Of a stretch of DNA of 64,000 nt, positions 3,081 through 31,787 are shown piece by piece. The DNA is from Prodigiosinella confusarubida. GTDB taxonomy: Bacteria > Pseudomonadota > Gammaproteobacteria > Enterobacterales > Enterobacteriaceae. The translations under genes and the position numbers were made by a program. The notes beneath the pieces are model-generated. The model did no database searches, had not been told where the DNA came from, and saw nothing but the letters and a program-made list of their open reading frames with translations. Each line of letters begins with the position of its first letter. Within the stretch, counting starts at the first letter, position 1. The DNA lies in assembly GCF_002847015.1 (NCBI RefSeq), contig NZ_CP025085.1, positions 4,898,001-4,962,000 of the forward strand, written 5' to 3'.

Positions 3081-3156
3081 GCCCGGATAGCTCAGTCGGT
3101 AGAGCAGAGGATTGAAAATCCTCGTGTCCTTGGTTCGATTCCGAGTCCGGGCACCA
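3081..3156 (+). tRNA. pheU: tRNA-Phe (GAA)
   Basis: A 76-nt tRNA with a complete cloverleaf, acceptor stem GCCCGGA/TCCGGGC, anticodon GAA in the loop ATTGAAAAT, T-loop GGTTCGATTCC and an encoded CCA end. It differs from E. coli tRNA-Phe only in the anticodon stem. It lies after dsbD-yjdC like E. coli pheU, a common integration target for genomic islands, and an integrase fragment follows it here. Confidence 0.98.
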
Positions 3157-6319: not shown

Positions 6320-7339
6320 TCAGCGTTCCCCCTTATGACTAAGCGTCCGCTGTACAGCACTGATAATGCTGTCTACGCCAGGCAGGTAGCGGTCCTCCAG
6401 AGCTGGAGAGAAAGGAACCGGGGTATGCGGGGCGCTAATCATCTGCGGCGGCGCTTTCAGTGCGCCGAACGCATGCTGCACCACCTGAGCGATAATGTCG
6501 GTGGCGATGTTACAGCGCGGGTGGGCTTCATCCACTACCACCAGTCGACCGGTGTTTTCTACCGTTTCGATAACGGTATCGAGATCCAGTGGCGAGAGCG
6601 AGCGCAAATCGACAATCTCGACGCTGACCCCCTGTTTCGCCAACTGTGCGGCGGCGTCGAGGGCACGGTGCACCATCAGCCCATAGGTGATAATAGAAAC
6701 ATCGCTACCGTCGCGCACGATACTGGCTTCGCCAAATGGGATTGCATACGGATGCTCGGGGACGTCGCCCTCCATACCGTACAGATTTTTATGTTCGCAG
6801 AAGATCACCGGATCATTATCGCGAATTGACTGGATCAGCAACCCCTTGGTGTCATACGGCGTACTGGGGCAGATGACCTTCAATCCGGGAATATGGGTAA
6901 ACAGCGGCGTCAGCATCTGGGAATGCTGCGCGGCGGCGCGAAATCCGGCACCGACCATGGCGCGGATCACCACTGGTGTTTGCGCCTTGCCGCCGAACAT
7001 ATAGCGGAATTTGGCGGCCTGGTTGAAAATTTGATCGAAACACACCCCCATGAAGTCAATAAACATCAGTTCGGCGATCGGGCGCATACCGCAAGCGGCG
7101 GCACCGATGGCCGCGCCGACGTAGGCCGATTCTGACAGCGGGGTGTCCAGCAGGCGATCGCCATGCTTGGCGTATAGCCCTTTGGTAACGCCAAGCACAC
7201 CACCCCAGGCATCTTTTTCCCCATCGGTTCCCATGCCGCCGACGATATCCTCACCGAGCATAATCACGCTGGGATCACGCGCCATTTCCTGGTCTATCGC
7301 TTCATTGATAGCGAGCTTCATACTAAGTTTACGAGCCAT
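6320..7339 (-). CDS. acoB: Acetoin dehydrogenase E1 beta subunit AcoB
   Basis: A 339-residue transketolase-like protein starting MARKLSMKLAINEAIDQEMA, with the E1-beta motif VIMLGEDIVGG, the TPP-side region and a C-terminal transketolase domain (SIITYGLMVHRALDAA, EIVDLRSLSPLD). With AcoA it forms the thiamine-diphosphate E1 that cleaves acetoin into acetaldehyde and a hydroxyethyl unit. AAGGAG sits 7 bases before the ATG at 7339. Upstream in-frame ATGs (7345, 7381) fit the ribosome site less well and would extend past the family start. Confidence 0.93.
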   Translation of the reverse strand: MARKLSMKLAINEAIDQEMARDPSVIMLGEDIVGGMGTDGEKDAWGGVLGVTKGLYAKHGDRLLDTPLSESAYVGAAIGAAACGMRPIAELMFIDFMGVCFDQIFNQAAKFRYMFGGKAQTPVVIRAMVGAGFRAAAQHSQMLTPLFTHIPGLKVICPSTPYDTKGLLIQSIRDNDPVIFCEHKNLYGMEGDVPEHPYAIPFGEASIVRDGSDVSIITYGLMVHRALDAAAQLAKQGVSVEIVDLRSLSPLDLDTVIETVENTGRLVVVDEAHPRCNIATDIIAQVVQHAFGALKAPPQMISAPHTPVPFSPALEDRYLPGVDSIISAVQRTLSHKGER

Positions 7340-7367
7340 GTCCATTCTCCTTCGGGTGAAATTATCG

Positions 7368-8372
7368 TCAGTAGCTGACATAAACGTCGGTTAATAAATC
7401 GTCGGCGCTGGGATCGGGTGCAGCTTTGGCTTCTTGTACCGCCTGTTCGATTAGCGCGGCCACTTCACGATCGATGGCGTGTAACTCTCCAAGGCGGAGG
7501 ATCCCGCTCTGTTGGACATGGTTGATAAAATGCTTCAGGCAGTCCTGGTGCTTGCGGATCGATTCCAGTTCGTCCGGTGCCCGGTAAGTTTGCGCATCCC
7601 CTTCAAAGTGACCGTAGAAGCGCACCATTTTGCACTCAAGCAGCGCAGGACCGCCGCCGGCGCGCGCATGGCGGATCAACTCACCGGCGGTTTCGTAGAC
7701 GGCGAAAAAGTCTGTACCATCAACAGTGACGCCGGGGATGCCAAACCCGGCTGCACGATCGACATAACTATCTACCGCGGTGGCGTACTGGCGTGATGTA
7801 GCTTCGGCATAGCCATTATTCTCGATCACGAACAGCACTGGCAGGTTCCAAACCGCCGCCAGATTCAGGCTTTCGAGAAACGTCCCCTGATTGGCGGCAC
7901 CATCGCCAGCGAAGCTGATGCCGATTTCACCCTTGCCGCGGAATTTGGCTGCCAGCGCCGCGCCGCACACCAGCGGTGCGCCCGCCCCTAAAATGCCATT
8001 GGCGCCCATCATTCCTTTGCTCAGGTCAGCAATGTGCATTGAGCCGCCCTTGCCGTTACAAGCGCCGCCAGTTTTACCGTAAATTTCTTTCATCATGGCG
8101 ATAACGTCGACGCCTTTGGCAATGCAGTGCCCGTGGCCACGGTGGGTACTGGCGATGCGATCGCCATCGGTGAGGTGGGATAAAATGCCGACCGCCGTCG
8201 CCTCTTCGCCAGCATACAGATGGACAAAACCAGGAATGTCGCCACGTGAAAAATCGACGTGTAGCCGCTCTTCAAAATCTCGGATGGTACGCATGCGGCG
8301 ATAGGCGCTCAACAAGGCTTCGCGAGTGAGCGGCAGGGAAGCAGAGTGTGGGTTATTATCGGTATTGTTCAT
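7368..8372 (-). CDS. acoA: Acetoin dehydrogenase E1 alpha subunit AcoA
   Basis: A 334-residue thiamine-diphosphate-dependent E1 alpha protein. The TPP-binding motif GDGAANQGTFLESLNLA ... IENN lies at about 156-186, and the phosphorylation-loop region and HRGHGH motif of the family are present. GGAG six bases before the ATG at 8372 supports that start; an ATG two codons earlier touches the ribosome site. It sits between acoX and acoB, with short gaps consistent with one operon. Confidence 0.93.
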   Translation of the reverse strand: MNNTDNNPHSASLPLTREALLSAYRRMRTIRDFEERLHVDFSRGDIPGFVHLYAGEEATAVGILSHLTDGDRIASTHRGHGHCIAKGVDVIAMMKEIYGKTGGACNGKGGSMHIADLSKGMMGANGILGAGAPLVCGAALAAKFRGKGEIGISFAGDGAANQGTFLESLNLAAVWNLPVLFVIENNGYAEATSRQYATAVDSYVDRAAGFGIPGVTVDGTDFFAVYETAGELIRHARAGGGPALLECKMVRFYGHFEGDAQTYRAPDELESIRKHQDCLKHFINHVQQSGILRLGELHAIDREVAALIEQAVQEAKAAPDPSADDLLTDVYVSY

Positions 8373-19342: not shown

Positions 19343-20050
19343 TCAGATTAATTTTCTAAAATAAATCCGCGCCAGTCCCTCTTTGGTAACTTCAACAGCA
19401 TGCTCCGCACTGAGTGAAACGTGTGTCTCAATTAACGGTATCCCTGTTTCCACATCTCGCTGACGTAATGCCGCGATAATTTCCACGTGTTCGTCGTAAG
19501 CGTTGTTACGTCGACTCGGGGTTTCCAGATCGATCCGACGAAAGAAACGAATCAGAGAATTCAGGCCATCAAGCGTTTCATACAATCGGGAATTCTTGGC
19601 GATTCTGGCAATCGACATATGAAATGCCTCATCAGCCTCGGCGACTTTTGTCCAATCGGTGATAGTGTCAGGGTCTGGCAATTCACGGCAACTCTGTTCC
19701 CAGATAGCCACCGTCTGCGCAATGTCACTGTCGCTGGCTCGCTGGCAGGCAAAGCGGAACGCGGCCTGTTCAATCACCGCCCGCAGTTCATAAAGTTCGC
19801 GTACACCGTCGGGCGTGATATCCCGGGAATAAAACCCGCGGTTAGGAACAAAGTTCATGAAGCCATCTTGCGCCAAACGATTCAACGCCTCACGAACTGG
19901 CGTACGAGAAACCCCCAACCGACTAGCCAGCTCAACCTCATTGACCCGTTCACCGGGCTTGAAGTGATAATCAATCGCCAGCGCTTTCACCACCTCGTAG
20001 ACTTTCTCAACACTGTCCGCGCTCCGCGCGGTTTTCTGGCTGACTGACAC
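19343..20050 (-). CDS. GntR-family (FCD/FadR type) regulator
   Basis: A 235-residue repressor-type protein. The N-terminal winged helix contains ERVNEVELASRLGVSRTPVREALNRLAQDGF, and the all-helical FCD ligand domain has its metal-binding-type residues in AFHMSIARIAKNSRL and H-containing C-terminal helices. The GTG at 20050 is preceded by GAGGATATAAC. It stands between the minus-strand VOC operon and the plus-strand ABC importer and probably controls both; the candidate operator pair is listed separately. Confidence 0.88.
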   Translation of the reverse strand: MSVSQKTARSADSVEKVYEVVKALAIDYHFKPGERVNEVELASRLGVSRTPVREALNRLAQDGFMNFVPNRGFYSRDITPDGVRELYELRAVIEQAAFRFACQRASDSDIAQTVAIWEQSCRELPDPDTITDWTKVAEADEAFHMSIARIAKNSRLYETLDGLNSLIRFFRRIDLETPSRRNNAYDEHVEIIAALRQRDVETGIPLIETHVSLSAEHAVEVTKEGLARIYFRKLI

Positions 20051-20605: not shown

Positions 20606-20737
20606 ATAACAACCTGAAGTGGCTTGAATACAGCAAAGCACACCACGCGGGTGGTGATTGATGACAACACGGCAACGCCCCACATGATGACAGCCGCCAT
20701 AAACGCTGCCTCATTTCATCCAGACAGGAGACGCAGT

Positions 20738-21850
20738 ATGACAGTGCACATTCGTAACGCTTTCTTTGCTTCAGCGCTGATGAGCAGCGCACTTTTTGGC
20801 TTATCCAGACCCGCGATGGCCGATATCACTGTCGGTGCCATTCTGCCGTTGACCGGTACCAGCGCCAGCATTGGTGAAGATCAACGCCGTGGGGTGGAAC
20901 TGGCGGTTGATCAGGTCAATGCCCAGGGTGGCGTCGACGGGCAAAAACTGGCGGTGATAGTCGAAGATTCTGCCGGCAACCCGGTTACAGCGTTAGATGC
21001 CGTGCGCAAACTAACACAAGTGGATCATGTACCACTGGTGGTCGGTGCCTTTTCTTCCAGTGTCACTATTCCGATCGGGCAGTATCTGGTGAAAAACCAT
21101 TTAGTGCACATCAACATCTCTGGCACTAGCACAGATATCCGCAAAATAGGCAAGTTCTCCTACAGTGTTATCGGGCTCGATGATCTGTCCGCCCGCTTCT
21201 CCGCCAAAGATGTCTATGCCATGGGTTACCGTAAAGTCGCTTTCATCGCGCCGAACGGCGCTTATGGTCAGGGTATGGCGGAACAGTTCACCAAGTTCTT
21301 CCAGCAACTAGGGGGCAAGGTCGTAGCCAAAACACTGTATACCAGCGGCCAGTCATCATATCGGCGTGAGTTGGAGCAGTTATCTCGCTATAAGCCTGAC
21401 GTCTATGTTTACACGACTTACGGCCAGGATGCGGTAGTCCTCAACCGCGAGTCTTACGAGCTGGGACTGAATAAAACCCCTTGGTATGGCATGTATCTGA
21501 CCATGTGTACAGCCAATTCACCGGCACAATACACCCAGGGGAAAATGGGGATGGAAGTGGCCGGACTGAGTGACAAAGGCCAACGCTATACCGAACAGTA
21601 CCGCAAGCGCTATAACGAAAACCCAAAATCCGCCTATGGCAGTTATGCCTATGACAGCATCATGCTCGCTGCTGCCGCGATCAACAAAGCAGGTAGTGCC
21701 GACCCCGCCGCATTGCAGACAGCGATGCTAGCAGTGGCGCCGCACTTTGTCGGTGTGACCGGACCACTGAATCTGGATGCTGATCATATGCGCCAGACAC
21801 AACCATACGAAAAAGTGAAATCAGTAAACGGTGCCCTGGCACCTCGTTAA
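20738..21850 (+). CDS. Branched-chain-type ABC transporter substrate-binding protein
   Basis: A 370-residue periplasmic binding protein of the LivJ/UrtA-like family. A signal peptide (about 1-28, ending PAMA) precedes DITVGAILPLTGTSASIGED, the standard start of the mature domain. AGGAG seven bases before the ATG at 20738 fixes the start; an ATG at 20624 would give an implausible leader. The remainder shows two Rossmann-like lobes (VPLVVGAFSSSVTIPIGQYL, KVAFIAPNGAYGQGMAEQF). First gene of a five-gene importer operon. Confidence 0.9.
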   Translation: MTVHIRNAFFASALMSSALFGLSRPAMADITVGAILPLTGTSASIGEDQRRGVELAVDQVNAQGGVDGQKLAVIVEDSAGNPVTALDAVRKLTQVDHVPLVVGAFSSSVTIPIGQYLVKNHLVHINISGTSTDIRKIGKFSYSVIGLDDLSARFSAKDVYAMGYRKVAFIAPNGAYGQGMAEQFTKFFQQLGGKVVAKTLYTSGQSSYRRELEQLSRYKPDVYVYTTYGQDAVVLNRESYELGLNKTPWYGMYLTMCTANSPAQYTQGKMGMEVAGLSDKGQRYTEQYRKRYNENPKSAYGSYAYDSIMLAAAAINKAGSADPAALQTAMLAVAPHFVGVTGPLNLDADHMRQTQPYEKVKSVNGALAPR

Positions 21851-21900
21851 ACGGCGAGTGAGCCTGCTCACTGCACGATAGCCCTGTACAGGAAAGCATT

Positions 21901-22794
21901 ATGTTCCAGTTCATGCTTGATACATTAATACGTACCGCCGATCTATCCTTGATTGCGCTGGGATTAAGTCTGGTTTACGGCCTGGTCCGGTTCGCCAATA
22001 TTGCGCATGTGCAATATGCCATGGTCGGCTCATTTCTGACCGCTGCGCTGTTGCGGATTGGAGTGCCGTTTCCACTGGCGGTGATCATCTCCAGTGGCTT
22101 ATGCGGCGTCATCGCCATGTTATTACACCACTGGGTATTCCGGCGCCTGGTGAAAGCGGGTTCCGCCAATGCCATGATCGGCTCACTGGCGGTGTCGATG
22201 ATCATGCTGGCCCTGGTTCTGGGCATTGCCGGTTCGTCACCGGTGGGCTACGGCCTACCGATAAGTCCGGCACTCTCGCTGGATGGCACCCGCGTATCGG
22301 GTGATCAACTGTGGACAATCGCCATCACCCTACTGCTGTTATCAGGCTTTAGTTGGTTATTGTTTCATTCCACTCTGGGCCGCGCTATCCGCGCACTAAC
22401 CAGCAACCGCGATTTGGCGGCAGCTTCCGGACTTAATGCTAATGCTATCGTGCATGTGGTTAATCTCATTGCCGGTGCACTGGCCGGACTGGGCGGCTCT
22501 TTACTGGCTATGAACTCCAGCGCTTATCTCAATCAGGGTAATGATCTGCTGTTGCCCGTGCTGGCTTCCGCCATTTTGGGCGGATTGGGTAATCCAATGG
22601 GCGCGGTGCTGGGTGCCTTGTTGATCGCCGTGACGGAAACACTGGTGACCAACCTCAATTTTGGCTGGCTGACCGGTGGTGGTTTGGCATTTATTCCAGT
22701 GACTTACATCAATGCCGCCTCATTCATCATACTGTTGCTGGCACTGTTGTTGCGCCCGTACGGCTTATTTAACCGGGAGGTTCGCCGTGTTTGA
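21901..22794 (+). CDS. ABC transporter permease, LivH type
   Basis: A 297-residue inner-membrane permease with about eight hydrophobic segments and the family motifs GLSLVYGLVRFANIAH near the start and GALAGLGGSLLAMNSS in the coupling region. AGGAAAGC precedes the ATG. It pairs with the LivM-type permease whose start lies inside its last codons. Confidence 0.9.
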   Translation: MFQFMLDTLIRTADLSLIALGLSLVYGLVRFANIAHVQYAMVGSFLTAALLRIGVPFPLAVIISSGLCGVIAMLLHHWVFRRLVKAGSANAMIGSLAVSMIMLALVLGIAGSSPVGYGLPISPALSLDGTRVSGDQLWTIAITLLLLSGFSWLLFHSTLGRAIRALTSNRDLAAASGLNANAIVHVVNLIAGALAGLGGSLLAMNSSAYLNQGNDLLLPVLASAILGGLGNPMGAVLGALLIAVTETLVTNLNFGWLTGGGLAFIPVTYINAASFIILLLALLLRPYGLFNREVRRV

Positions 22795-23674
22795 CTTTCT
22801 GCTGCATATCATCACGATTGCCGGTATCTATGCACTGGTCGCACTGTCTTTGAACATACAGGCGGGCTATGCCGGGTTACTGAATTTTGGTCACATTGCA
22901 TTTGTGGGCATCGGGGCTTATGCCGCCGGGATAGGCGCACAACTGGGCATACCTTTTGTGCTATCCGGTGCCATAGGCATTGGTCTGGCGATGCTGTCAG
23001 GCGCTGGCATGGCCGTTCTCGGGCGTCAGCTGGCCGCCGATTATTGGGGGATCGCCACGCTGGCAGTGGCAGAAATCATTCGCATTGTGATCATTAATGA
23101 AAATGAACTCACTGGGGGTGCACAGGGTATTGGCAACATTGCCGCCCCCTGGTCCAGCGGATCGCAGCAAAGTGACAGTATCATTTTTGCCATTGTTATC
23201 CTGCTGGTGCTACTGCTGGTTACCCTGCTGTCACTACAGATAGGTAAAAGCCGATTCGGGCGCGCTCTACGTCTGATGCGAGAACAACCACAGCTCGCCA
23301 CCTGTATGGGTTATCACCTGCAATGGCTGAAATGCCAAACACTGATGTGCAGTGCAGCAATCGGTGCTCTCGCCGGCATATTGCTGGCCTGGTACACCAG
23401 TTATGTCAGCCCGGATTACCTGCTCTCCTCCGAAACCTTTCTGATCTGGAGCATGGTGATGATCGGCGGTATCGGTAATGTTGCCGGGGTATTGATCGGC
23501 GTATTGGTGGTAGAAAGCCTGTACAACTTTATTCCTTTTGCCAAAGACATGTTTCACATCAGTTCTGATATCACCGGAGCGCTTCGACTAGGTATGGTTG
23601 GGGTTATTTTGCTGGGCTGTTTATTAGGACGGGCGGGCGGGTTACTGCCGGAACGACTGAGGATAATACCATGA
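22787..23674 (+). CDS. ABC transporter permease, LivM type
   Basis: A 295-residue membrane permease. It begins at a GTG (22787) six bases after GGGAGG and gives MFDFLLHIITIAGIYALVALSLN, the normal LivM start; the earlier in-frame ATG at 22712 would read through the upstream permease in a non-hydrophobic frame. Family motifs include NIQAGYAGLLNFGHIAFVG and GGIGNVAGVLIG. It overlaps the LivH-type gene by 8 bases and the ATPase gene by 4. Confidence 0.9.
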   Translation: MFDFLLHIITIAGIYALVALSLNIQAGYAGLLNFGHIAFVGIGAYAAGIGAQLGIPFVLSGAIGIGLAMLSGAGMAVLGRQLAADYWGIATLAVAEIIRIVIINENELTGGAQGIGNIAAPWSSGSQQSDSIIFAIVILLVLLLVTLLSLQIGKSRFGRALRLMREQPQLATCMGYHLQWLKCQTLMCSAAIGALAGILLAWYTSYVSPDYLLSSETFLIWSMVMIGGIGNVAGVLIGVLVVESLYNFIPFAKDMFHISSDITGALRLGMVGVILLGCLLGRAGGLLPERLRIIP

Positions 23675-24450
23675 CGCCATTAATGCAGGTTGACGCCGTA
23701 TGTAAAGCCTTCGGCGGCAACCGTGTACTGGAAGGGGTGACGTTTACCCTGAAACAGGGAGAAATTCTCGGCTTGCTAGGCCCCAACGGTTCGGGAAAAA
23801 GCACCCTGTTAAACGCTATTTCCGGTTTCACTCCCATTGACAGCGGCACCATTACTGTCAGCGGGCAGCGTATCGACCGACTGGCGACACACCATATTAT
23901 CGAAACGGGTGTTGCCCGCACGTTCCAACTACCGGCAATGCCAGAAAAAATGACCGTGATGGAAGTGGTGATGGCTGCCGGGACACAACAGCACGGCTTT
24001 TGGGGCAGCCTGTTATCGTTACCGGCCACCCGGCGGGCAGAACGGGCCGGCAGAGAAAAAGCCGGGGCATTAATCGACGAGCTGTTACTGACACAGGTAC
24101 GTGATCTCCCCGCTGCCGCCTTGTCTGGCGGACAGAAAAAACTGCTGGGGATCGCCTGCGCCCTGATGGGGAACCCCAAAGTTTTGATGCTGGATGAACC
24201 CATGGCGGGCGTTCACCCCAATCTTCGGCGTGATATTGTCGAGACACTGCTGCGACTGAACCGTGATGGCCTGTCGCTGGTGGTCATTGAACACGATATG
24301 CATTTTATCCGCGAACTTTGCCAGCGCTGCATCGTGCTGGACAGAGGAGATATCGTCGCCAGTTGCCGTCCGGAGGAACTAGCGGACAATCCACAGGTAC
24401 TGGAAGCCTATCTGGGGCGCAACACGCAAATATTACAGGAGGCGGTATGA
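23671..24450 (+). CDS. ABC transporter ATPase, LivG type
   Basis: A 259-residue ATPase with Walker A GPNGSGKST, signature LSGGQKKLLGIACAL, Walker B VLMLDEPMAGVHP and the switch histidine in VVIEHDMHFI. VARTFQ and the LivG-specific insertion identify the LivG subgroup. The ATG overlaps the stop of the LivM-type permease (ATGA). Confidence 0.91.
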   Translation: MTPLMQVDAVCKAFGGNRVLEGVTFTLKQGEILGLLGPNGSGKSTLLNAISGFTPIDSGTITVSGQRIDRLATHHIIETGVARTFQLPAMPEKMTVMEVVMAAGTQQHGFWGSLLSLPATRRAERAGREKAGALIDELLLTQVRDLPAAALSGGQKKLLGIACALMGNPKVLMLDEPMAGVHPNLRRDIVETLLRLNRDGLSLVVIEHDMHFIRELCQRCIVLDRGDIVASCRPEELADNPQVLEAYLGRNTQILQEAV

Positions 24451-25166
24451 TTACGCTGAACGAGGTGATCGCTGGTTATACGCCGGGTATCGATATTCTA
24501 CAGGGCATTTCCCTGCACGTTGAACGGGCAGAGATCGTCACATTACTCGGCCCCAACGGTTGCGGTAAGTCCACCCTATTGAAATGCATTGCCGGTTATT
24601 TACGACCACGCTGTGGTCAGGTCATGCTCGATGGTCAGGATGTTAGTCAAATCCCGATTCACCGCAAAGTTCGTGAGTGCTCACTGGGGTTCGTACCACA
24701 AACAGACAATGTGTTTAACAATCTGACTATCAAGGAAAATCTGCAAACGGGCGGCCAGTTTTTATCGGATGCCGAACGCCAGCAACGCATGGAAGCGCTG
24801 TGCGAACGCTACCCATTACTGCGCAAAAAATGGCGAGCCACCGCATCAGCACTCTCCGGTGGAGAACGTCAGATTCTTGCCCTGACCCGTGCCCTGATGC
24901 CGAAACCCGCCACTTTGCTGCTGGATGAACCTTCTGCCGGGTTATCACCGAAAATGCTCAGCGATGTCTTTGCAGCGATTCAGGACATCCGGCGCCAGGA
25001 AGATGTAGCTATTCTGATGGTGGAGCAAAATGCGATGGAAGCATTGCATATCTCTGACCGTGCCTATGTCCTGGCGCTGGGCAAAGTCGCCCTGACTGGC
25101 AATGCTGATGAATTGTTATGCGACCCCCGCATGCGGGAATTGTATTTGGGAGGCCGGGCGGCATAA
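24447..25166 (+). CDS. ABC transporter ATPase, LivF type
   Basis: A 239-residue ATPase with Walker A GPNGCGKST, signature LSGGERQILALTRALM, Walker B LLLDEPSAGLSP and MVEQNAMEAL, typical of LivF. The ATG at 24447 follows AGGAGGCGGT and overlaps the LivG-type stop. It is the last gene of the importer operon. Confidence 0.91.
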   Translation: MITLNEVIAGYTPGIDILQGISLHVERAEIVTLLGPNGCGKSTLLKCIAGYLRPRCGQVMLDGQDVSQIPIHRKVRECSLGFVPQTDNVFNNLTIKENLQTGGQFLSDAERQQRMEALCERYPLLRKKWRATASALSGGERQILALTRALMPKPATLLLDEPSAGLSPKMLSDVFAAIQDIRRQEDVAILMVEQNAMEALHISDRAYVLALGKVALTGNADELLCDPRMRELYLGGRAA

Positions 25167-25463: not shown

Positions 25464-27179
25464 TTAAAATGTCTCCCAGCCATCCTGACTGGCTGGGGTT
25501 TTGATCACAGATAACGACGGTGTTTTCAGTAATACCCGCTTTAGGGTTGGCGATATGGAAACCTGCCCCTCGGTCGACAATTCGCTATCAAGGCGGAAAG
25601 CAGATACGGCCTGATTTAATCTTTCTGCCTGTTCAGTCAGAGATGCTGCGGCTGATGTCGCCTCTTCCACCAGCGCGGCATTTTGCTGCGTCACATTGTC
25701 GATGGAATGGATCGCCTGCCCGACTTGATCAATACCCTTGCTCTGCTCCTGCGAAGCAACAGAGATCTCCGCCATAATATCTGTCACGCTAGTGACCGCG
25801 TTCACAATCTCCTGCATGGTGTCACCCGCTTTACCTACCTGCTCAGAACCCGTTCTGACCAGAGAAACCGATTCGCTGATCAGGCCTTCAATCTCCTTTG
25901 CCGCCTCAGCACTGCGCTGCGCCAGTGTTCGAACCTCACCGGCAACCACGGCGAAACCACGCCCTTGTTCCCCTGCCCGAGCCGCCTCTACCGCCGCATT
26001 GAGCGCCAGAATATTGGTCTGGAAAGCGATACCATTGATAATGTTGGTGATTTCGGAGATTTTTTTCGAGCTGCGATCAATGTTTCCCATGGTTTGAACC
26101 ACACCGGCGACAATATCACCGCCTTCGCGGGCTTTGCCGGACGCATTGCCTGACAATTGCGTGGCATGATTCGCGTTATCCGCATTATGTTTCACCGTAG
26201 ACGTCAACTCCTCCATGCTGGCAGATGTCTGTTCCAATGCCGACGCTTGCTGTTCTGTCCGAGCGGACAGATCGGTATTCCCTGCCGAAATCTCGGTAAT
26301 TCCCTGATAAATTGACTCAACCCCCTGGCGCACATTACTGACGGTTTTTACCAGCGATTGCTGCATATTTTGCAGATAATGCCCAAGTTGCCCTATCTCA
26401 CCTCGTCCCCATTGCATCAGCGGCATTGTCAGGTCGCCAGAAGAAATATGCTCGATACGGGTCACCAAATCTTTCATCGGCTGGATCACGACACGACTCA
26501 GACACAGGAAAGTAAACAGTGAAACCAATACTGCGGCCACAAAACTCCCACCCATCACCATATAACCAAGCCGTGACTCACTCTGCGCTTTGCTATTCAG
26601 GATTTCTGCCCGTTGGGTACGGATAGCCACCACCTTCAACAACACCTCATTGTATGCAAGATCCAGCTTACGGGTCTTTTTCCATTCAATATCAATAACA
26701 TCAGCATAGCGACCATTTTTTACCGCATCCAGCATGGGTTTAAGGCCAGTATTAACATAATCGTTATAACGTTGCTGCAACGCCTCATCCAGCGCGGCAT
26801 CTGCCGGGGTTTTTACTGCCCGTCCCTGGTAGGCCGCAAAGCTCTCTGCCGACTTTTTCAGCCGTGTTTCGGCCTGGGCAATACTGCTATTGGCCGTTTC
26901 CATGTCGCTTTCACGTGCAGCCGCAGCCGCCTGAATCAACATTAGCCGGGCAGCACGCAAGTGATTAGAACTATTTGAAACACCCATCCGTACCTGTATT
27001 TCAGCAGTAACATCGTTAAGAGAATGGTTACTCAGCATCAGAAAGTGAACGGCAAAGCCGATCGACACAGCAAACAAGAGCAGGATGAGACCAATAATGG
27101 CGTTAAACAGAGGCATCAGTCGCCAGTTATGCCAAAAACTCATATCTGACGAACCCGATGAAATGGCTGAAGTATTCAA
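25464..27179 (-). CDS. Methyl-accepting chemotaxis protein
   Basis: A receptor of about 571 residues: short N-terminal tail, first membrane helix ([21 protein letters not shown]), periplasmic four-helix ligand domain, second helix ([19 protein letters not shown]), HAMP domain and cytoplasmic signalling domain with the hairpin tip [20 protein letters not shown]. The C-terminus ends DGWETF, a match to the NWETF-type docking site for CheR and CheB. I prefer a TTG start at 27179, seven bases after AAGGA; an ATG at 27143 lacks a ribosome site. Ligand unknown. Confidence 0.9.
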
Positions 27180-27739
27180 TGTCTTTTCCTTTTCAAATAG
27201 AATAGCTGCCTGAATAAAATCAAAGTGGTCGAGCCGCCAGAGAACACAATCCATTGATTTAAAAGAGATTATAAAAAACAAGCATGACTGTATATAGATA
27301 AATGCCAGAATAATAAGGTCATTATTTTGGCAATATCACAATCACTAAGAGTAATACTTACAGCACCATATAATAGAGTAGCTATGTGGGTAATTGCCCA
27401 CTAACTTAATAAATTTAAAAGTTCAGAAAAACGGAAAAAATAATGAGTTACGCGGAATTAACATAATTAAGTGATTCAAATTTATTCCAATCACTTCTTC
27501 ACCATAAAATAATAAGGATGATAATATTAACCAGTACTGGCAGACAATACATATTCAAGCAATGGCTTGTCACAGATAAAAGCACCACACTTGGATAATA
27601 AAAAAAATAAAATACCGTAAAAGTCAAATAAACCGGAACCATGGTCCTTTTTAACCATGACCATAAGCATGGTATATCTTATTACCCCAAAACAGGCGTA
27701 AGATTAATAAAATGATAAAGCCGTTATATATCTATCAAC
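27180..27739. other. AT-rich intergenic region
   Basis: About 560 bases, strongly AT-rich, between the divergent chemoreceptor and exporter genes. It presumably carries both promoters. I see no RNA gene, convincing operator or repeat. The low GC extends into the next two genes. Confidence 0.5.
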
Positions 27740-28900
27740 ATGATCACATATTTTATTTTGATCTTTGCTACAGCGATATCTGCATTAGCAACCGACATGC
27801 TAGTTCCGGCATTGAATATTATCAAGGAAGATCTCTCTGTCAGTTATTCTACCGTACAGGCCACAATCAGTCTCTTTCTGATATTTTTTGCTATCGGACA
27901 ATTATTAGCGGGCTACTTATCTGATCGCGTAAAAAAACTGTATGTGCTTAATGGTGGAATGACTGTTTTTATCATCGGCAGCATTATTTGCAGTTATGCT
28001 GATAATGCCGCTGGATTATTGGCCGGACGGGCTCTACAGGCTATCGGTGCCAGTACGGGCCCGATTGTTGCACGGTCACTGGCGAAAGAGTGTTATGACG
28101 GCAAAAAACTTCAGCGTGTCATTGCTGATATTGCAACCGCCAGTGCAGTAATACCGCTTCTCGCGCCAGTATTGGGTGGTCAAATGGTGGAGCCGTGGGG
28201 ATGGCGTTCATTGTTTTATTTTATGGCGCTATTTGGGGCAGTTACCATACTGCTGAGCTTATTCGCACCATTTAGACATCAAATAGCAGCGGCAACAGAA
28301 CAAACATGTAATTACAACGATCTAATCCATAACCGTGCTTTCATTCATGGCACGTTGATTGTCACACTGACATTTTCCGGTTTGCTGTGTTTTATTTCTT
28401 TATCACCGGTGATCTATCACATCAGTATATTTTCATCACCCGCTTATTTCTCGTTTATTTTCTTTGGTGCGGTAGCCTGCTATATGCTGGGAACCCAATT
28501 AGCAAAAACAACAATCGCACATAACGTATCAATGGTTATCTCCGCACAAATCATCAGTGGTTTATTATTCCTTTTCAGTGGATTATTTTTCCCGGAAAGC
28601 CTGTCATTACTGATCATTGCTGGCATCGTTTTTAATATCGCTTCTGGTGCTATCTATCCGCAAGGCCATACCCAGGCGCTCAATGTCAATATAAAAATAG
28701 TTGGCACAGCCACTGCAATTACCGGGTTTACTCAAATGATCATCGCCGCTGTGCTCAGCTACCTTGCTGGTCTGGTTACTGACTATGTTCCACGAACAGA
28801 TATTGTGCTGGGACTGTTTATTATTATTATTACTTCAGGTCAATTTTTATTTATTTTTAAATCAAGGGGAAAAACCGATGATGTAAATTGTCTTAATTAA
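27740..28900 (+). CDS. MFS exporter, Bcr/CflA family
   Basis: A 386-residue transporter with 12 hydrophobic segments. Drug/H+ antiporter motifs are seen: GYLSDRVKKLYVLNGGM (motif A) and GRALQAIGASTGPIVARSLAKE, typical of Bcr/CflA proteins. The first membrane helix begins almost at the start codon and the ribosome site is weak. A different-frame ATG at 27712 encodes MIKPLYIYQ just upstream, so a start frameshift is possible. Base composition is visibly lower in GC than the surroundings. It is 14 bases upstream of the oxoamine synthase and probably exports its product. Confidence 0.85.
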   Translation: MITYFILIFATAISALATDMLVPALNIIKEDLSVSYSTVQATISLFLIFFAIGQLLAGYLSDRVKKLYVLNGGMTVFIIGSIICSYADNAAGLLAGRALQAIGASTGPIVARSLAKECYDGKKLQRVIADIATASAVIPLLAPVLGGQMVEPWGWRSLFYFMALFGAVTILLSLFAPFRHQIAAATEQTCNYNDLIHNRAFIHGTLIVTLTFSGLLCFISLSPVIYHISIFSSPAYFSFIFFGAVACYMLGTQLAKTTIAHNVSMVISAQIISGLLFLFSGLFFPESLSLLIIAGIVFNIASGAIYPQGHTQALNVNIKIVGTATAITGFTQMIIAAVLSYLAGLVTDYVPRTDIVLGLFIIIITSGQFLFIFKSRGKTDDVNCLN

Positions 28901-28914
28901 CAAAAGGAATAATT

Positions 28915-30138
28915 ATGAACAATTGGCAAGCAAAAAAAATACAACAATCTAGAACCCATCAGAACCGGGTTTTCAATGAACATGTAAACGAATTGGAAGT
29001 TTCAGAACGACACGGTAAAGTAATTACGCTGAGCGATGGCCGACGTATGGTTGAATTTGTTTCCTGCTCTTATTTAGGATTGGAAACACATCCTGATCTT
29101 GTCGCAGCAATACATAAAGCGGTTGATAAATTTGGCGCTCAACTTTCCGTTGCCAGAACCCGAATCAAAGTCGATATTTTTAATCGCTTTGAATCATTGC
29201 TTTCGTCTATTATAGCAGGGGTGCCGGTATTATCATTTAATGCAGTAACCCCCTGCCATTTGGCTGTATTACCTTTATTGGGTTCAGGGGAATTACCTCA
29301 CTTTACTTATAATAAAGGTCCGATATTTCTTTTAGATAAAACGGCCCATGCCACCATGCAAATCAATCGGGGATTATTATTGCAGTTCGGTGAAGTCCGT
29401 CGCTTTGATTTTCAGGATACTGACAGGCTGGAAAGCGAGTTTGCCGGAGCCGAGTCAAAAGGCCTGACGCCCGTATCCATTTCCGACAGTGTTGGTTCTA
29501 TGGGTGGAGTGGCGCCGGTAAACCTTCTGCTGCATCTGGCTGAAAAACATAATGGCTATGTCTATCTGGATGATGCACACGGAACCAGCGTTTTCGGCAA
29601 AAACGGGGCAGGATATGTGATGGAATGTACCAATAATCACTTCCCCGAACGCCTTATTCTTGTGGGTTCTCTATCGAAAGCGTTCGGCTCTCATGGCGGT
29701 TTTGTCGCCTGCCAGAAAGAAGACACTCATCTATTTATCAAGCAATTTGGTACGACCTATGCCTTTGGCGGCCCACCGTCACTGCCAGGTATTGCCGCAT
29801 GTGTTGCCGCTGCCGAGCTGCATTTAAATGGTGAAGTCACCAGGCGCCAACAATTATTGCAAAAAATGATCAACGTCTTTGATGAGGCGTTCAACGCACA
29901 TCACGTCATTAATCACAACGCGTTGATGCCAATACGTGGGCTGTTTATCGGTAACGAAGATCGCGCCATTTCAGTTTGCGCGGCACTTCACGACAAGGGA
30001 TTTGCAACGACAGTTGCCATGTTCCCAACCGTTGAACAGGGCAAGGCGATGTTGCGTTGCGCTATCTCAGCCAACCATAGTCCGGAACAAATCAACGCTT
30101 TCGCCTCCGCGTTTAAAGACGTGTTAGCGGTTCATTGA
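28915..30138 (+). CDS. Alpha-oxoamine synthase family PLP enzyme (CqsA/BioF/KBL-like)
   Basis: A 407-residue fold-type I PLP enzyme of the family that condenses an amino acid with an acyl-thioester and releases CO2. Visible residues are the stacking His145 (TAHATM), DSVGSMGGVAP at about 191, the PLP-ring Asp in YLDDAHGTSVFG (219-222) and the Schiff-base Lys255 in GSLSKAFGSHGGF. It is not BioF or Kbl by context: there are no bio or tdh genes, and it is paired with an exporter. The glycine-rich GSGGSR segment of BioF is replaced by GAQLSVARTRIK. A role in making a small amino-ketone (as CqsA does for CAI-1) is an inference. Confidence 0.82.
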   Translation: MNNWQAKKIQQSRTHQNRVFNEHVNELEVSERHGKVITLSDGRRMVEFVSCSYLGLETHPDLVAAIHKAVDKFGAQLSVARTRIKVDIFNRFESLLSSIIAGVPVLSFNAVTPCHLAVLPLLGSGELPHFTYNKGPIFLLDKTAHATMQINRGLLLQFGEVRRFDFQDTDRLESEFAGAESKGLTPVSISDSVGSMGGVAPVNLLLHLAEKHNGYVYLDDAHGTSVFGKNGAGYVMECTNNHFPERLILVGSLSKAFGSHGGFVACQKEDTHLFIKQFGTTYAFGGPPSLPGIAACVAAAELHLNGEVTRRQQLLQKMINVFDEAFNAHHVINHNALMPIRGLFIGNEDRAISVCAALHDKGFATTVAMFPTVEQGKAMLRCAISANHSPEQINAFASAFKDVLAVH

Positions 30139-30148
30139 TTCGTTCGTC

Positions 30149-30184
30149 CCACAGGACTGATGCGGCGTGTAATCAGCCCTGTGG
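30149..30184. terminator. Bidirectional terminator hairpin
   Basis: CCACAGGACTGAT pairs with ATCAGCCCTGTGG (one mismatch) around a 10-base loop, between the converging oxoamine synthase (+) and SDR (-) genes. There is no long T-tract, so it may act in both directions with moderate strength. Confidence 0.6.
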
Positions 30185-30206
30185 TCGGTTCCGCACTAAA
30201 CGTCAG

Positions 30207-30950
30207 TCAGGTTTCGTTGAACGCCCGGAATAATACTTCATAATTACCGTTTCGCTGGGCAAATCGGAAGGGTTGCGCCCGCTGCACCACAATTTCACCG
30301 GCAGTTGGCTGCGAAGATAATAACATCATGGTTTCACTGATAAATGCCTGTAATGGCATCGCCTGAGGATCGAACCCCCACTCGCCCTGTAAGCCGGTTT
30401 GTACCCAGGGAGGAATGATTTCAATCACCTGCACCGGGCTATTACGTAATTGGCAACGCAGTGATTGAGTGTAAGAGTGCAACGCCGCTTTGGTGGCACA
30501 ATACGTCGGTGTGATAGCCTGCGGCAGAAAAGCCAGCTCAGAGGTCACGTTCAGAATTGCCGCCTGAGATTGCCGCATCAGTTGAGGCAATAAGGCGGTG
30601 GTCAGATAAATCGGTCCCAGCAAATTGGTGGCTACCGTGTCCTCCACCGCTGACAACTGTGGACGAATAAGGTCTTCCCGGCGCTGAATTCCGGCGTTAT
30701 TGATCACTACATTCAACTGAGGATATCTGGCAGTGAGAGAGGCGACGAAAGCGCTCACGTCACTGGCGTTGCGCTGATCCAACACTTGATAACTCATACC
30801 CGGATTAGCTGCTGCCGCTTGTTGCAGCGGCGTTTCGTGGCGACCCGCAATAATCACCTGATTTCCTGCCACATGGAACGCTTCTGCCAACTCCCGGCCG
30901 ATACCAGAACCACCGCCAGTAATCAGTATCGTATTACCCGTCATCCTCAT
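30207..30950 (-). CDS. Short-chain dehydrogenase/reductase (DltE-like)
   Basis: A 247-residue classical SDR: coenzyme motif TGGGSGIG (11-18), NNAG (84-87), and catalytic Ser137, Tyr150 and Lys154 (YCATK). GGAG six bases before the ATG at 30950 favours this start over an in-frame GTG at 30968. It belongs to the DltE-like oxidoreductases whose substrates are mostly unknown. It lies tail to tail with the oxoamine synthase; CAI-1-type pathways also use an SDR, but co-function here is conjecture. Confidence 0.87.
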   Translation of the reverse strand: MRMTGNTILITGGGSGIGRELAEAFHVAGNQVIIAGRHETPLQQAAAANPGMSYQVLDQRNASDVSAFVASLTARYPQLNVVINNAGIQRREDLIRPQLSAVEDTVATNLLGPIYLTTALLPQLMRQSQAAILNVTSELAFLPQAITPTYCATKAALHSYTQSLRCQLRNSPVQVIEIIPPWVQTGLQGEWGFDPQAMPLQAFISETMMLLSSQPTAGEIVVQRAQPFRFAQRNGNYEVLFRAFNET

Positions 30951-31027
30951 TGGTCGCTCCGTACTCACCTGCCGCTTTTAAGCAGAATATTACGCCATGA
31001 TCGCCTCTCGCTGCATATATCTGTCAC

Positions 31028-31057
31028 AAAAAAAGCGTGATGGCGTTATCACCACGC
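31028..31057 (-). terminator. Rho-independent terminator after the PPTase gene
   Basis: On the minus strand an 8-bp stem (GCGTGGTG with CATCACGC, one G-T pair) is followed by seven T residues (31034-31028). It lies 11 bases after the stop of the phosphopantetheinyl transferase gene. Confidence 0.85.
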
Positions 31058-31067
31058 AGGTTGGAAT

Positions 31068-31787
31068 TCAACAACAAATAAACGTGGTCACATCCCGCTC
31101 ACGCATTCGGTAAATACCACGAAAACAGCGCCCTGCCGGGTAATCAGGAGCCAGTGCAGTGCGCAATTCCAGCGTAAAAATCTGTTTAATGGTATCTAGT
31201 TCGACCATTCGGACATCCAGAAAATCAAAATAGCGCTTCACATGTGGATACAGCGCCTTATACAAGCTCTCCTTTGCCGAGAAATTCAGCGTCAACATCT
31301 CAGTAACGGTGATCTGATCCTGTGAACGCAGCCAGTTGTACTCAACCTCATCCACGATACCTGGCCACAGGCTATCCGCCCGTTCAGTAGTCATCACAGT
31401 TTCAACGTCCAGCCCGATACAAGAGAAGGTCTCACTGTGGAAATGGGCGGCACAAAATGCGCTGTCCACATTGTGACTCAGTGAACCTGACACCGTTGCT
31501 GGCCATTGCGGAGAACGATCACGCCCGTTTTGCAGGACAAAGTCACTAATACCGAGACGTTCCAGTACCTGTTTCGCCAGATAGCGCCCCGCCAGAAACT
31601 CTGCCCGTCGCTTGGGTACCGAACGCTCCATTTCCGCCGTGAGAGGAATGCCAGCGAGGAAGAACATATCGTCCCGATACGCTGGCAGGTAAAAATAACA
31701 GCGAGCACTAAACCCTGGATAAATGGTGTTGTTATCAGCCAGGTGGAATGTCATCCACTCTATTTCTTTAATAAAATCAGAAAGCAT
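31068..31787 (-). CDS. 4'-phosphopantetheinyl transferase (EntD-like)
   Basis: A 239-residue enzyme that moves phosphopantetheine from CoA onto carrier proteins of peptide or polyketide synthases. Conserved blocks are KRRAEFLAGR (59-68), GSLSH (101-105), IGLDVE with the metal-binding Asp (124-129) and FSAKESLYKAL (169-179). No synthase lies in the window, so its carrier is elsewhere; a link to the nearby oxoamine synthase (acyl-ACP supply) is possible but unproven. A later ATG at 31754 is an alternative start. Confidence 0.9.
   Translation of the reverse strand: MLSDFIKEIEWMTFHLADNNTIYPGFSARCYFYLPAYRDDMFFLAGIPLTAEMERSVPKRRAEFLAGRYLAKQVLERLGISDFVLQNGRDRSPQWPATVSGSLSHNVDSAFCAAHFHSETFSCIGLDVETVMTTERADSLWPGIVDEVEYNWLRSQDQITVTEMLTLNFSAKESLYKALYPHVKRYFDFLDVRMVELDTIKQIFTLELRTALAPDYPAGRCFRGIYRMRERDVTTFICC

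What the first reader, a model, noticed from the sequence alone, without database searches (positions are those of the whole stretch)
27740..31787. Possible small-molecule signal locus: oxoamine synthase with exporter, SDR and PPTase
A low-GC pair of exporter and alpha-oxoamine synthase, with all PLP residues intact, stands outside any biotin or threonine context. A ketone-reducing SDR and a phosphopantetheinyl transferase lie immediately beyond. CAI-1-type signals are made by an oxoamine synthase and an SDR, so this may produce an exported amino- or hydroxyketone. No receptor kinase is visible here.
Basis: inference. Interest (0 to 1): 0.7.

Follow-up and report, generated by a model that had tools for sequence, protein, structure and literature searches.

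The report
Mobile two-gene small-molecule bacteriocin cassette
This bacterium carries two neighbouring genes, which also sit together on plasmids of E. coli and Klebsiella, that are predicted to make a small amino-ketone and pump it out of the cell, likely as a weapon against rival bacteria with the pump as self-protection; the molecule itself is still unknown.

Summary
The exporter (27740-28900) and the alpha-oxoamine synthase (28915-30138) are real, with PLP residues intact. The SDR and PPTase are not part of the system: they run the other way, and a relative has MCP-SDR-PPTase with nothing between MCP and SDR. The synthase is not BioF, Kbl or CqsA: a 71-row tree puts it across a 100/100 branch from all three; Alb29, a natural-product enzyme, is its nearest solved relative. 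Close kin (61-64% identity) have the same exporter wherever I saw their surroundings: 34 of 34 plasmid records, contigs of Winslowiella, Klebsiella and Raoultella, and a second genome of this species. One carrier is a 6.7-kb E. coli plasmid with no other annotated cargo; on larger E. coli plasmids the pair lies beside colicin genes. Five of 39 plasmid records (two plasmid types) keep the exporter but lack most of the synthase. I read this as a mobile make-and-export cassette, most likely a non-peptide antibacterial whose pump also gives immunity (confidence 0.5). Substrates, product and target are unknown. A CqsA-type signal is unlikely; an exported metabolite with another role is the main rival.

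The parts
27740..28900 (+). Bcr/CflA-like (DHA1-type) MFS exporter, 386 aa; first gene of the pair; predicted product exporter and self-protection gene
   Evidence: PF07690 120 bits; best NCBIfam model TIGR00710 Bcr/CflA 168 bits, below its 200.9 cut-off. Falls with the synthase-linked exporters, 100/100, against 7 other MFS
28915..30138 (+). PLP-dependent alpha-oxoamine synthase of the PRK07505 branch, 407 aa; second gene of the pair
27282..27739 (.). 458-bp AT-rich (30.8% G+C) intergenic stretch upstream of the pair; left part of the insertion between MCP and SDR, presumably holds the promoter (not located)
   Evidence: G+C; in relative G014 MCP is followed directly by SDR; promoter-like matches in 27200-30300 not clearly above shuffles

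Best explanation
This is a two-gene cassette, likely gained by horizontal transfer, in which an alpha-oxoamine synthase of a branch separate from BioF, Kbl and CqsA is predicted to make a small alpha-aminoketone that the Bcr/CflA-like MFS pump likely exports, probably as an antibacterial against related bacteria with the pump as self-protection. Shown: the gene pair; the synthase's branch and intact PLP residues; linkage of synthase and exporter in every close relative whose surroundings were seen; plasmid carriage, in one lineage beside colicin genes; two small plasmid types with the exporter whole and most of the synthase gone; absence of the pair between MCP and SDR in a relative. Inferred: the reaction (decarboxylative condensation of an amino acid with an acyl thioester), export, the antibacterial role and immunity. 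Unknown: amino acid, acyl donor, product and target.
For: Mobility: 12 of 5,426 E. coli genomes by megablast, all 12 on plasmids; a 6,676-bp plasmid with the pair as its only annotated cargo. Bacteriocin setting: on two E. coli plasmid stretches the pair lies beside colicin lysis, immunity and pore-former genes; a third shows the immunity genes. One-sided loss: 5 of 39 plasmid exporter records lack most of the synthase (three of the five examined in sequence), pairwise dN/dS of the exporter 0.16-0.21; a further exporter at 74% aa identity stands alone on one E. coli chromosome. Exporter and synthase trees agree in their main splits. Rare: none of 59 relatives has a synthase above 30% identity.
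Against: No activity, product or target has been shown. The five synthase-less records are only two plasmid types, and whether they stem from one or two deletions is unresolved (8/3/1 informative sites, junctions 2 nt apart), so the one-sidedness rests on two to three events. The exporter could be kept because it pumps some other drug; dN/dS is about the same between two exporters that still have the synthase (0.20). The colicin neighbourhood looks like one plasmid lineage, and some colicin genes there are annotated as broken (lysis gene, cui). No LexA box is conserved upstream. In Klebsiella, Raoultella and Winslowiella a tryptophan-permease-like gene follows the synthase, which the antibacterial reading does not by itself explain. 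The window pair is chromosomal and its exporter is only 35-40% identical to the others.
Confidence: 0.5

Rival explanations
1. Exported small metabolite with another role: a metal-binding, host- or plant-directed or pyrazine-forming aminoketone, with the MFS as plain exporter.
For: Same anatomy predicts it. Some distant synthases of the family sit in small clusters with AMP-ligase-like, ATP-grasp-like (below cut-off), methyltransferase or iron-oxygenase-like genes (10 loci read by eye, 10 proteins scanned), as varied natural-product clusters do. A Trp-permease-like gene accompanies the pair in Klebsiella, Raoultella and Winslowiella.
Against: Does not predict retention of the exporter alone on two small plasmid types or carriage as sole annotated cargo of a 6.7-kb plasmid.
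Confidence: 0.25
2. Cell-cell signal of the CqsA/LqsA kind: the synthase makes an aminoketone, an SDR reduces it, and a kinase elsewhere senses it.
For: Same enzyme superfamily; export fits a signal; SDR next door in the window; one distant synthase (L065) has a weak SDR hit right behind it.
Against: CqsA equivalog 57 of 428 bits; 100/100 branch between them; the window's SDR is ancestral backbone; no SDR beside the pair in the kin that have it; an exporter kept without the synthase makes little sense for a signal.
Confidence: 0.1
3. Drug exporter with a passenger primary-metabolism enzyme (biotin-type 8-amino-7-oxononanoate or glycine acetyltransferase activity).
For: Bcr/CflA-type pumps export drugs (family knowledge); databases name some close homologues 8-amino-7-oxononanoate synthase.
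Against: BioF 178.6 of 426 bits, Kbl 120 of 493; the genome has its own BioF and Kbl; the Asn both share and the Gly-rich loop are replaced.
Confidence: 0.08

Closest known systems
Alb29 (8XHA, 8XHD, 8I7U), oxoamine synthase of the albogrisin pathway, Streptomyces albogriseolus
   Different: 27% identity; part of a Streptomyces natural-product pathway; the substrate loop differs; its gene neighbourhood was not looked at.
CqsA / LqsA autoinducer synthases
   Same: PLP oxoamine-synthase fold and catalytic residues.
BioF and Kbl
   Same: Same superfamily and chemistry type.
   Different: Below both equivalog cut-offs, separate branch, Asn and Gly-rich loop replaced.
Colicin and microcin plasmids
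   Same: Small mobilizable carriers, possible self-protection gene in the cassette, plasmids with the protector but not the maker, beside colicin genes in one lineage.
   Different: No peptide or protein toxin in the cassette: the maker is an enzyme.
Historical non-peptide microcins 15m and 93m of E. coli
   Same: Small amino-acid-related inhibitors secreted by gut enterobacteria; 15m blocks homoserine succinyltransferase and is antagonised by methionine (PMC6795089 and PMC12162799, passages).
   Different: No genes for them were named in the passages read; a link to this cassette is a guess.

Membership tests
NF005697 / PRK07505 synthases | score above the curated cut-off (342 bits) | tested here: met
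   440.6 bits over residues 2-405
CqsA/LqsA autoinducer synthase (NF005526) | score above the cut-off (428 bits) and place in the CqsA clade | tested here: not met
   57.1 bits; separated by a 100/100 branch from 5 CqsA rows
CqsA/LqsA quorum-sensing system | linked or genomic CqsS/LqsS-type receptor kinase | not tested
   no query for the receptor was run
BioF (TIGR00858) | score above cut-off 426 bits | tested here: not met
   178.6 bits; true BioF at G000:C1:2467516 scores 459
Kbl (TIGR01822) | score above cut-off 493 bits | tested here: not met
   120 bits; true Kbl at G000:C1:398767 scores 704.7
Bcr/CflA efflux family (TIGR00710) | score above cut-off 200.9 bits | tested here: not met
   168.4 bits, best model but below cut-off; MFS_1 (PF07690) itself is met
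Bacteriocin (colicin/microcin) system | ribosomally made peptide or protein toxin in the cassette | tested here: not met
   the only annotated cargo of the 6,676-bp plasmid is exporter and synthase; small unannotated ORFs were not searched
Bacteriocin (colicin/microcin) system | linked immunity gene, kept when the maker is lost | tested here: inconclusive
   5 of 39 plasmid records keep the exporter without most of the synthase, but only two plasmid types; protection not assayed
Bacteriocin (colicin/microcin) system | SOS (LexA) control | tested here: inconclusive
   a perfect core pattern upstream in Raoultella and a one-mismatch one in a Klebsiella plasmid, none in the other 5 of 7 upstream regions
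Anti-phage defence | match to a PADLOC model | tested here: not met
   0 families for both proteins at E 0.001

The most novel reading that the evidence does not exclude
A single enzyme and a single pump form a complete, plasmid-travelling, non-ribosomal bacteriocin: the synthase makes the antibacterial aminoketone in one step from primary metabolites, the pump exports it and gives immunity, and synthase-less plasmids are immunity-only cheaters. It could be the missing genetic basis of low-molecular-weight, amino-acid-reversible microcins such as 15m or 93m.
Probability: 0.3. Interest if true: 0.85.

Novelty: new variant of a known kind. Interest (0 to 1): 0.62.

Why it matters
If true, enterobacteria have a class of chemical weapon encoded by about 2.4 kb, small enough for Col-type plasmids, that searches for bacteriocin peptides or multi-gene clusters could miss. 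It would give a function to part of the PRK07505 group, named 'hypothetical protein' by its model, and make the 1980s small non-peptide microcins testable at the gene level. The window's genome looks like a genetically tractable laboratory strain (identity recalled from genome size), so the test is a pair of gene deletions. It would also separate a large synthase branch, joined to Alb29, from the BioF-type names now given to some of its members.

Tried and rejected
SDR and PPTase as members: rejected on synteny. BioF, Kbl, ALAS, SPT, CqsA: rejected by model scores and tree. Anti-phage defence: no PADLOC match. RNA element: no Rfam match in 27200-30300. Integration marks: no direct repeats of 14 nt or more in 27000-30500; the only tRNA of the window is at 3081-3156, so no attachment site was found. 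Promoter-like sites: 11 against a shuffle mean of 8.3, sd 3.2. Substrate prediction from the pocket: the residue that PMC11906848 names as a selectivity site (ThAOS V79; Val in Kbl, Ser in AONS and SPT, Thr in ALAS, Leu in Alb29) faces window Ala80 if Kbl, ALAS and SPT are followed and window Val79 if Alb29 is followed in the alignment, so it was not placed. R81, R83 and R341 are shared with the glutamate enzyme Alb29, while the reported ThAOS takes small amino acids; substrate not decided.

All ten paper searches: PRK07505 (0 papers); microcin 15m (passages read); alpha-oxoamine synthase+biosynthetic gene cluster (12 listed, mostly fungal); Alb29 (6 listed, passages of one read); oxoamine synthase+exporter+plasmid+Enterobacter; colicin+8-amino-7-oxononanoate synthase (5 listed, titles unrelated); Col156/MFS transporter/small plasmid (61 papers, 20 listed, one searched for passages: only a legend entry 'MFS transporter'); microcin/antimetabolite set (15 papers, 12 listed); ATCC 39006+MFS transporter+aminotransferase (1 listed, not read); oxoamine synthase+antibiotic+aminoketone+self-resistance (1 listed, not read). 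Nothing seen in these listings and passages describes the pair; unread listed papers may. The library holds open-licence papers only; the 1982 microcin 15m paper is not held.
Full report
What is there. The window is G000:C1:4898001-4962000 of a single-contig genome of 4,971,756 bp. The size, and a protein-cluster contig of 4,971,757 bp, fit Serratia sp. ATCC 39006 / Prodigiosinella confusarubida as I recall it; the name comes from no call (taxonomy entry only). MFS 27740-28900 and synthase 28915-30138 are on the + strand 14 bp apart; SDR 30207-30968 and PPTase 31068-31787 are on the - strand and meet the synthase tail to tail. G+C is 30.8% upstream, 41.5% MFS, 46.1% synthase, 49.6-52.8% in the neighbours.

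The SDR and PPTase belong to the backbone. In relative G014 (L115) the order MCP (77% identity), SDR (68%), PPTase (66%), TatD-like (65%), OsmY-like (59%), PrfC (92%) is kept, without the window's nucleoside transporter, and MCP is followed directly by SDR. Two other relatives with a more distant SDR (G011, G050) show no shared order there. A second genome of the same species (G273) has the pair in the same place at 99.5% identity. Loss in G014 instead of gain here is not excluded, but the pair is rare: of 60 genomes searched, own one included, three others match, at 29-30% identity; of 392 family genomes, own one included, 16 match NF005697 at 1e-90, of which 4 (own, G273, G457, G524) carry the 60%-or-better type, each with the exporter. 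The other 13 of 16 stretches fetched have synthases of 25-39% identity without this exporter; one (L172) has a weakly similar MFS (22-28%) beside it.

The exporter travels with it. Of 34 plasmid records with a synthase at 60% or more, 34 also carry the exporter (searches compared; 24 Klebsiella-type, 10 E. coli-type, many near-identical; two records are split by the record start). Contigs of Winslowiella iniecta, Klebsiella grimontii, K. michiganensis and Raoultella terrigena have it next to the synthase; G457 has it on a 5.28-Mb contig. The surroundings of most of the close database proteins were not seen. An exporter tree puts 12 rows (window, 7 from synthase-bearing loci, 2 from synthase-less plasmids, 2 database proteins whose surroundings were not seen) on one side of a 100/100 branch against 7 others, including 4 MFS of this genome, and its main splits follow the synthase tree. 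The window exporter's only hits at 1e-30, besides itself, are those two Klebsiella MFS proteins of 38-39% identity (word-based search, limited sensitivity). The exporter changes faster than the synthase: 36% against 64% identity to Winslowiella.

It is mobile and, in one lineage, keeps bacteriocin company. By megablast the E. coli-type pair is in 12 of 5,426 E. coli genomes, all on plasmids: 9 whole, 3 exporter-only; a more sensitive search adds one chromosomal exporter at 75% DNA identity. Two records of a 6,676-bp plasmid carry rep (annotated in one), exporter, synthase, mobQ and one small gene. On two larger plasmids (one with an IncFII repA in the stretch) the order is lysis gene, Cki, Cui, pore-forming colicin, two small genes, Exc2 lipoprotein, exporter, synthase; the lysis gene in one and cui in the other are annotated as broken. 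An IncF plasmid shows Cki, Cui, Exc2 and the pair, its colicin not listed in an incomplete gene table. These look like one lineage. Of five Klebsiella-type plasmid stretches read one has an S-type pyocin-domain gene about 4 kb away; the other four list no bacteriocin gene.

Loss is one-sided, on few events. In the plasmid collection 5 of 39 exporter records lack most of the synthase: three 3,838-bp records (two E. coli, one Salmonella) and two 5,654-bp E. coli records; I examined three of the five in sequence. About 1 kb of the synthase is gone, from just after its start, at a short repeat; the two types differ by 2 nt at the junction. The exporter ORF is whole; pairwise dN/dS is 0.16-0.21, much as between two exporters that still have the synthase (0.20); codon changes on the two exporter-only lineages are 19 silent to 11 replacement and 13 to 8, plus 6 to 1 at shared differences. 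One or two deletions cannot be told apart. An orphan exporter at 74% aa identity sits among IS66 and T6SS genes of one E. coli chromosome with no synthase in 15 kb. No case of the 60%-type synthase without the exporter was seen.

What it most likely does. Oxoamine synthases condense an amino acid with an acyl thioester, releasing CO2 (family knowledge; PMC11906848 passages). With no tailoring gene in common, the product is probably the aminoketone itself or what forms from it spontaneously (inference). An exporter that is kept when the maker is lost, on small plasmids of gut bacteria, is what an immunity gene would look like (inference); drug efflux would explain it too. In Klebsiella, Raoultella and Winslowiella a permease whose best equivalog model is the tryptophan permease, below its cut-off (only the Winslowiella one, of three scanned, passes the wider aromatic-amino-acid-transporter model), follows the synthase (cut short in K. 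michiganensis); it may feed the synthase or relieve starvation in the producer (speculation). It is absent from the window and from the E. coli-type plasmids read.

Against known kinds. It works like a bacteriocin plasmid cassette but is not one by definition, as no peptide gene is annotated. It shares its chemistry type with CqsA but is not a CqsA. The nearest solved enzyme is Alb29. Ten paper searches (listed under Tried and rejected) showed no description of the pair in what I saw, which was listings and passages of four papers; the library is open-licence only.

Noticed in passing
L160 (NZ_CP116169.1) 7127-8245 -: Orphan exporter, 74% aa identical to the E. coli plasmid one, on a chromosome among IS66 and T6SS genes, with a Rop-type plasmid gene about 6 kb away; no synthase in 15 kb.
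   Followed up: partly
L014 6258-6848 +; L019 7927-8841 +: The 'hypothetical protein' before the exporter on a Klebsiella plasmid looks like a decayed copy of the DMT-type transporter that precedes the pair in K. grimontii (44% over 174 aa, changed end).
   Followed up: partly
L017 5950-9230; L161 4669-6990: On IMI-2 plasmids of Enterobacter ludwigii and of E. coli isolate DH10B-pSB89A a 43% identical synthase follows an asparagine-synthase gene beside an arsenic operon; both genes look cut or split in L161.
   Followed up: no
L034 8109-12557; L024 523-5221; L043 9989-15372: Distant synthases sit in small clusters: Pseudomonas with a haem-oxygenase-like iron enzyme, a DUF3419 protein and an AMP-ligase-like protein; Bartonella with an ATP-grasp-like protein (below cut-off), another MFS and an unassigned protein; Photorhabdus similar by eye, with an O-methyltransferase.
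   Followed up: partly
L065 10001-11781: A Chlamydiae MAG has a 46% identical synthase (in two tblastn pieces) with a weak SDR hit (28%) right behind it.
   Followed up: no
P0057 (Photobacterium phosphoreum): A synthase inside the exporter-linked clade with otherwise conserved motif residues changed (DDTHGIS, SINSMGR); its neighbours are unknown.
   Followed up: no
window 20624-25166 +: A branched-chain-amino-acid-type ABC transporter set (binding protein, two permeases, two ATPases) next to a GntR-type regulator at 19343-20050 -, named from sequence by eye.
   Followed up: no
G000:C1:2554240-2554983 +: A second copy of the SDR at 55% identity elsewhere in the genome.
   Followed up: no
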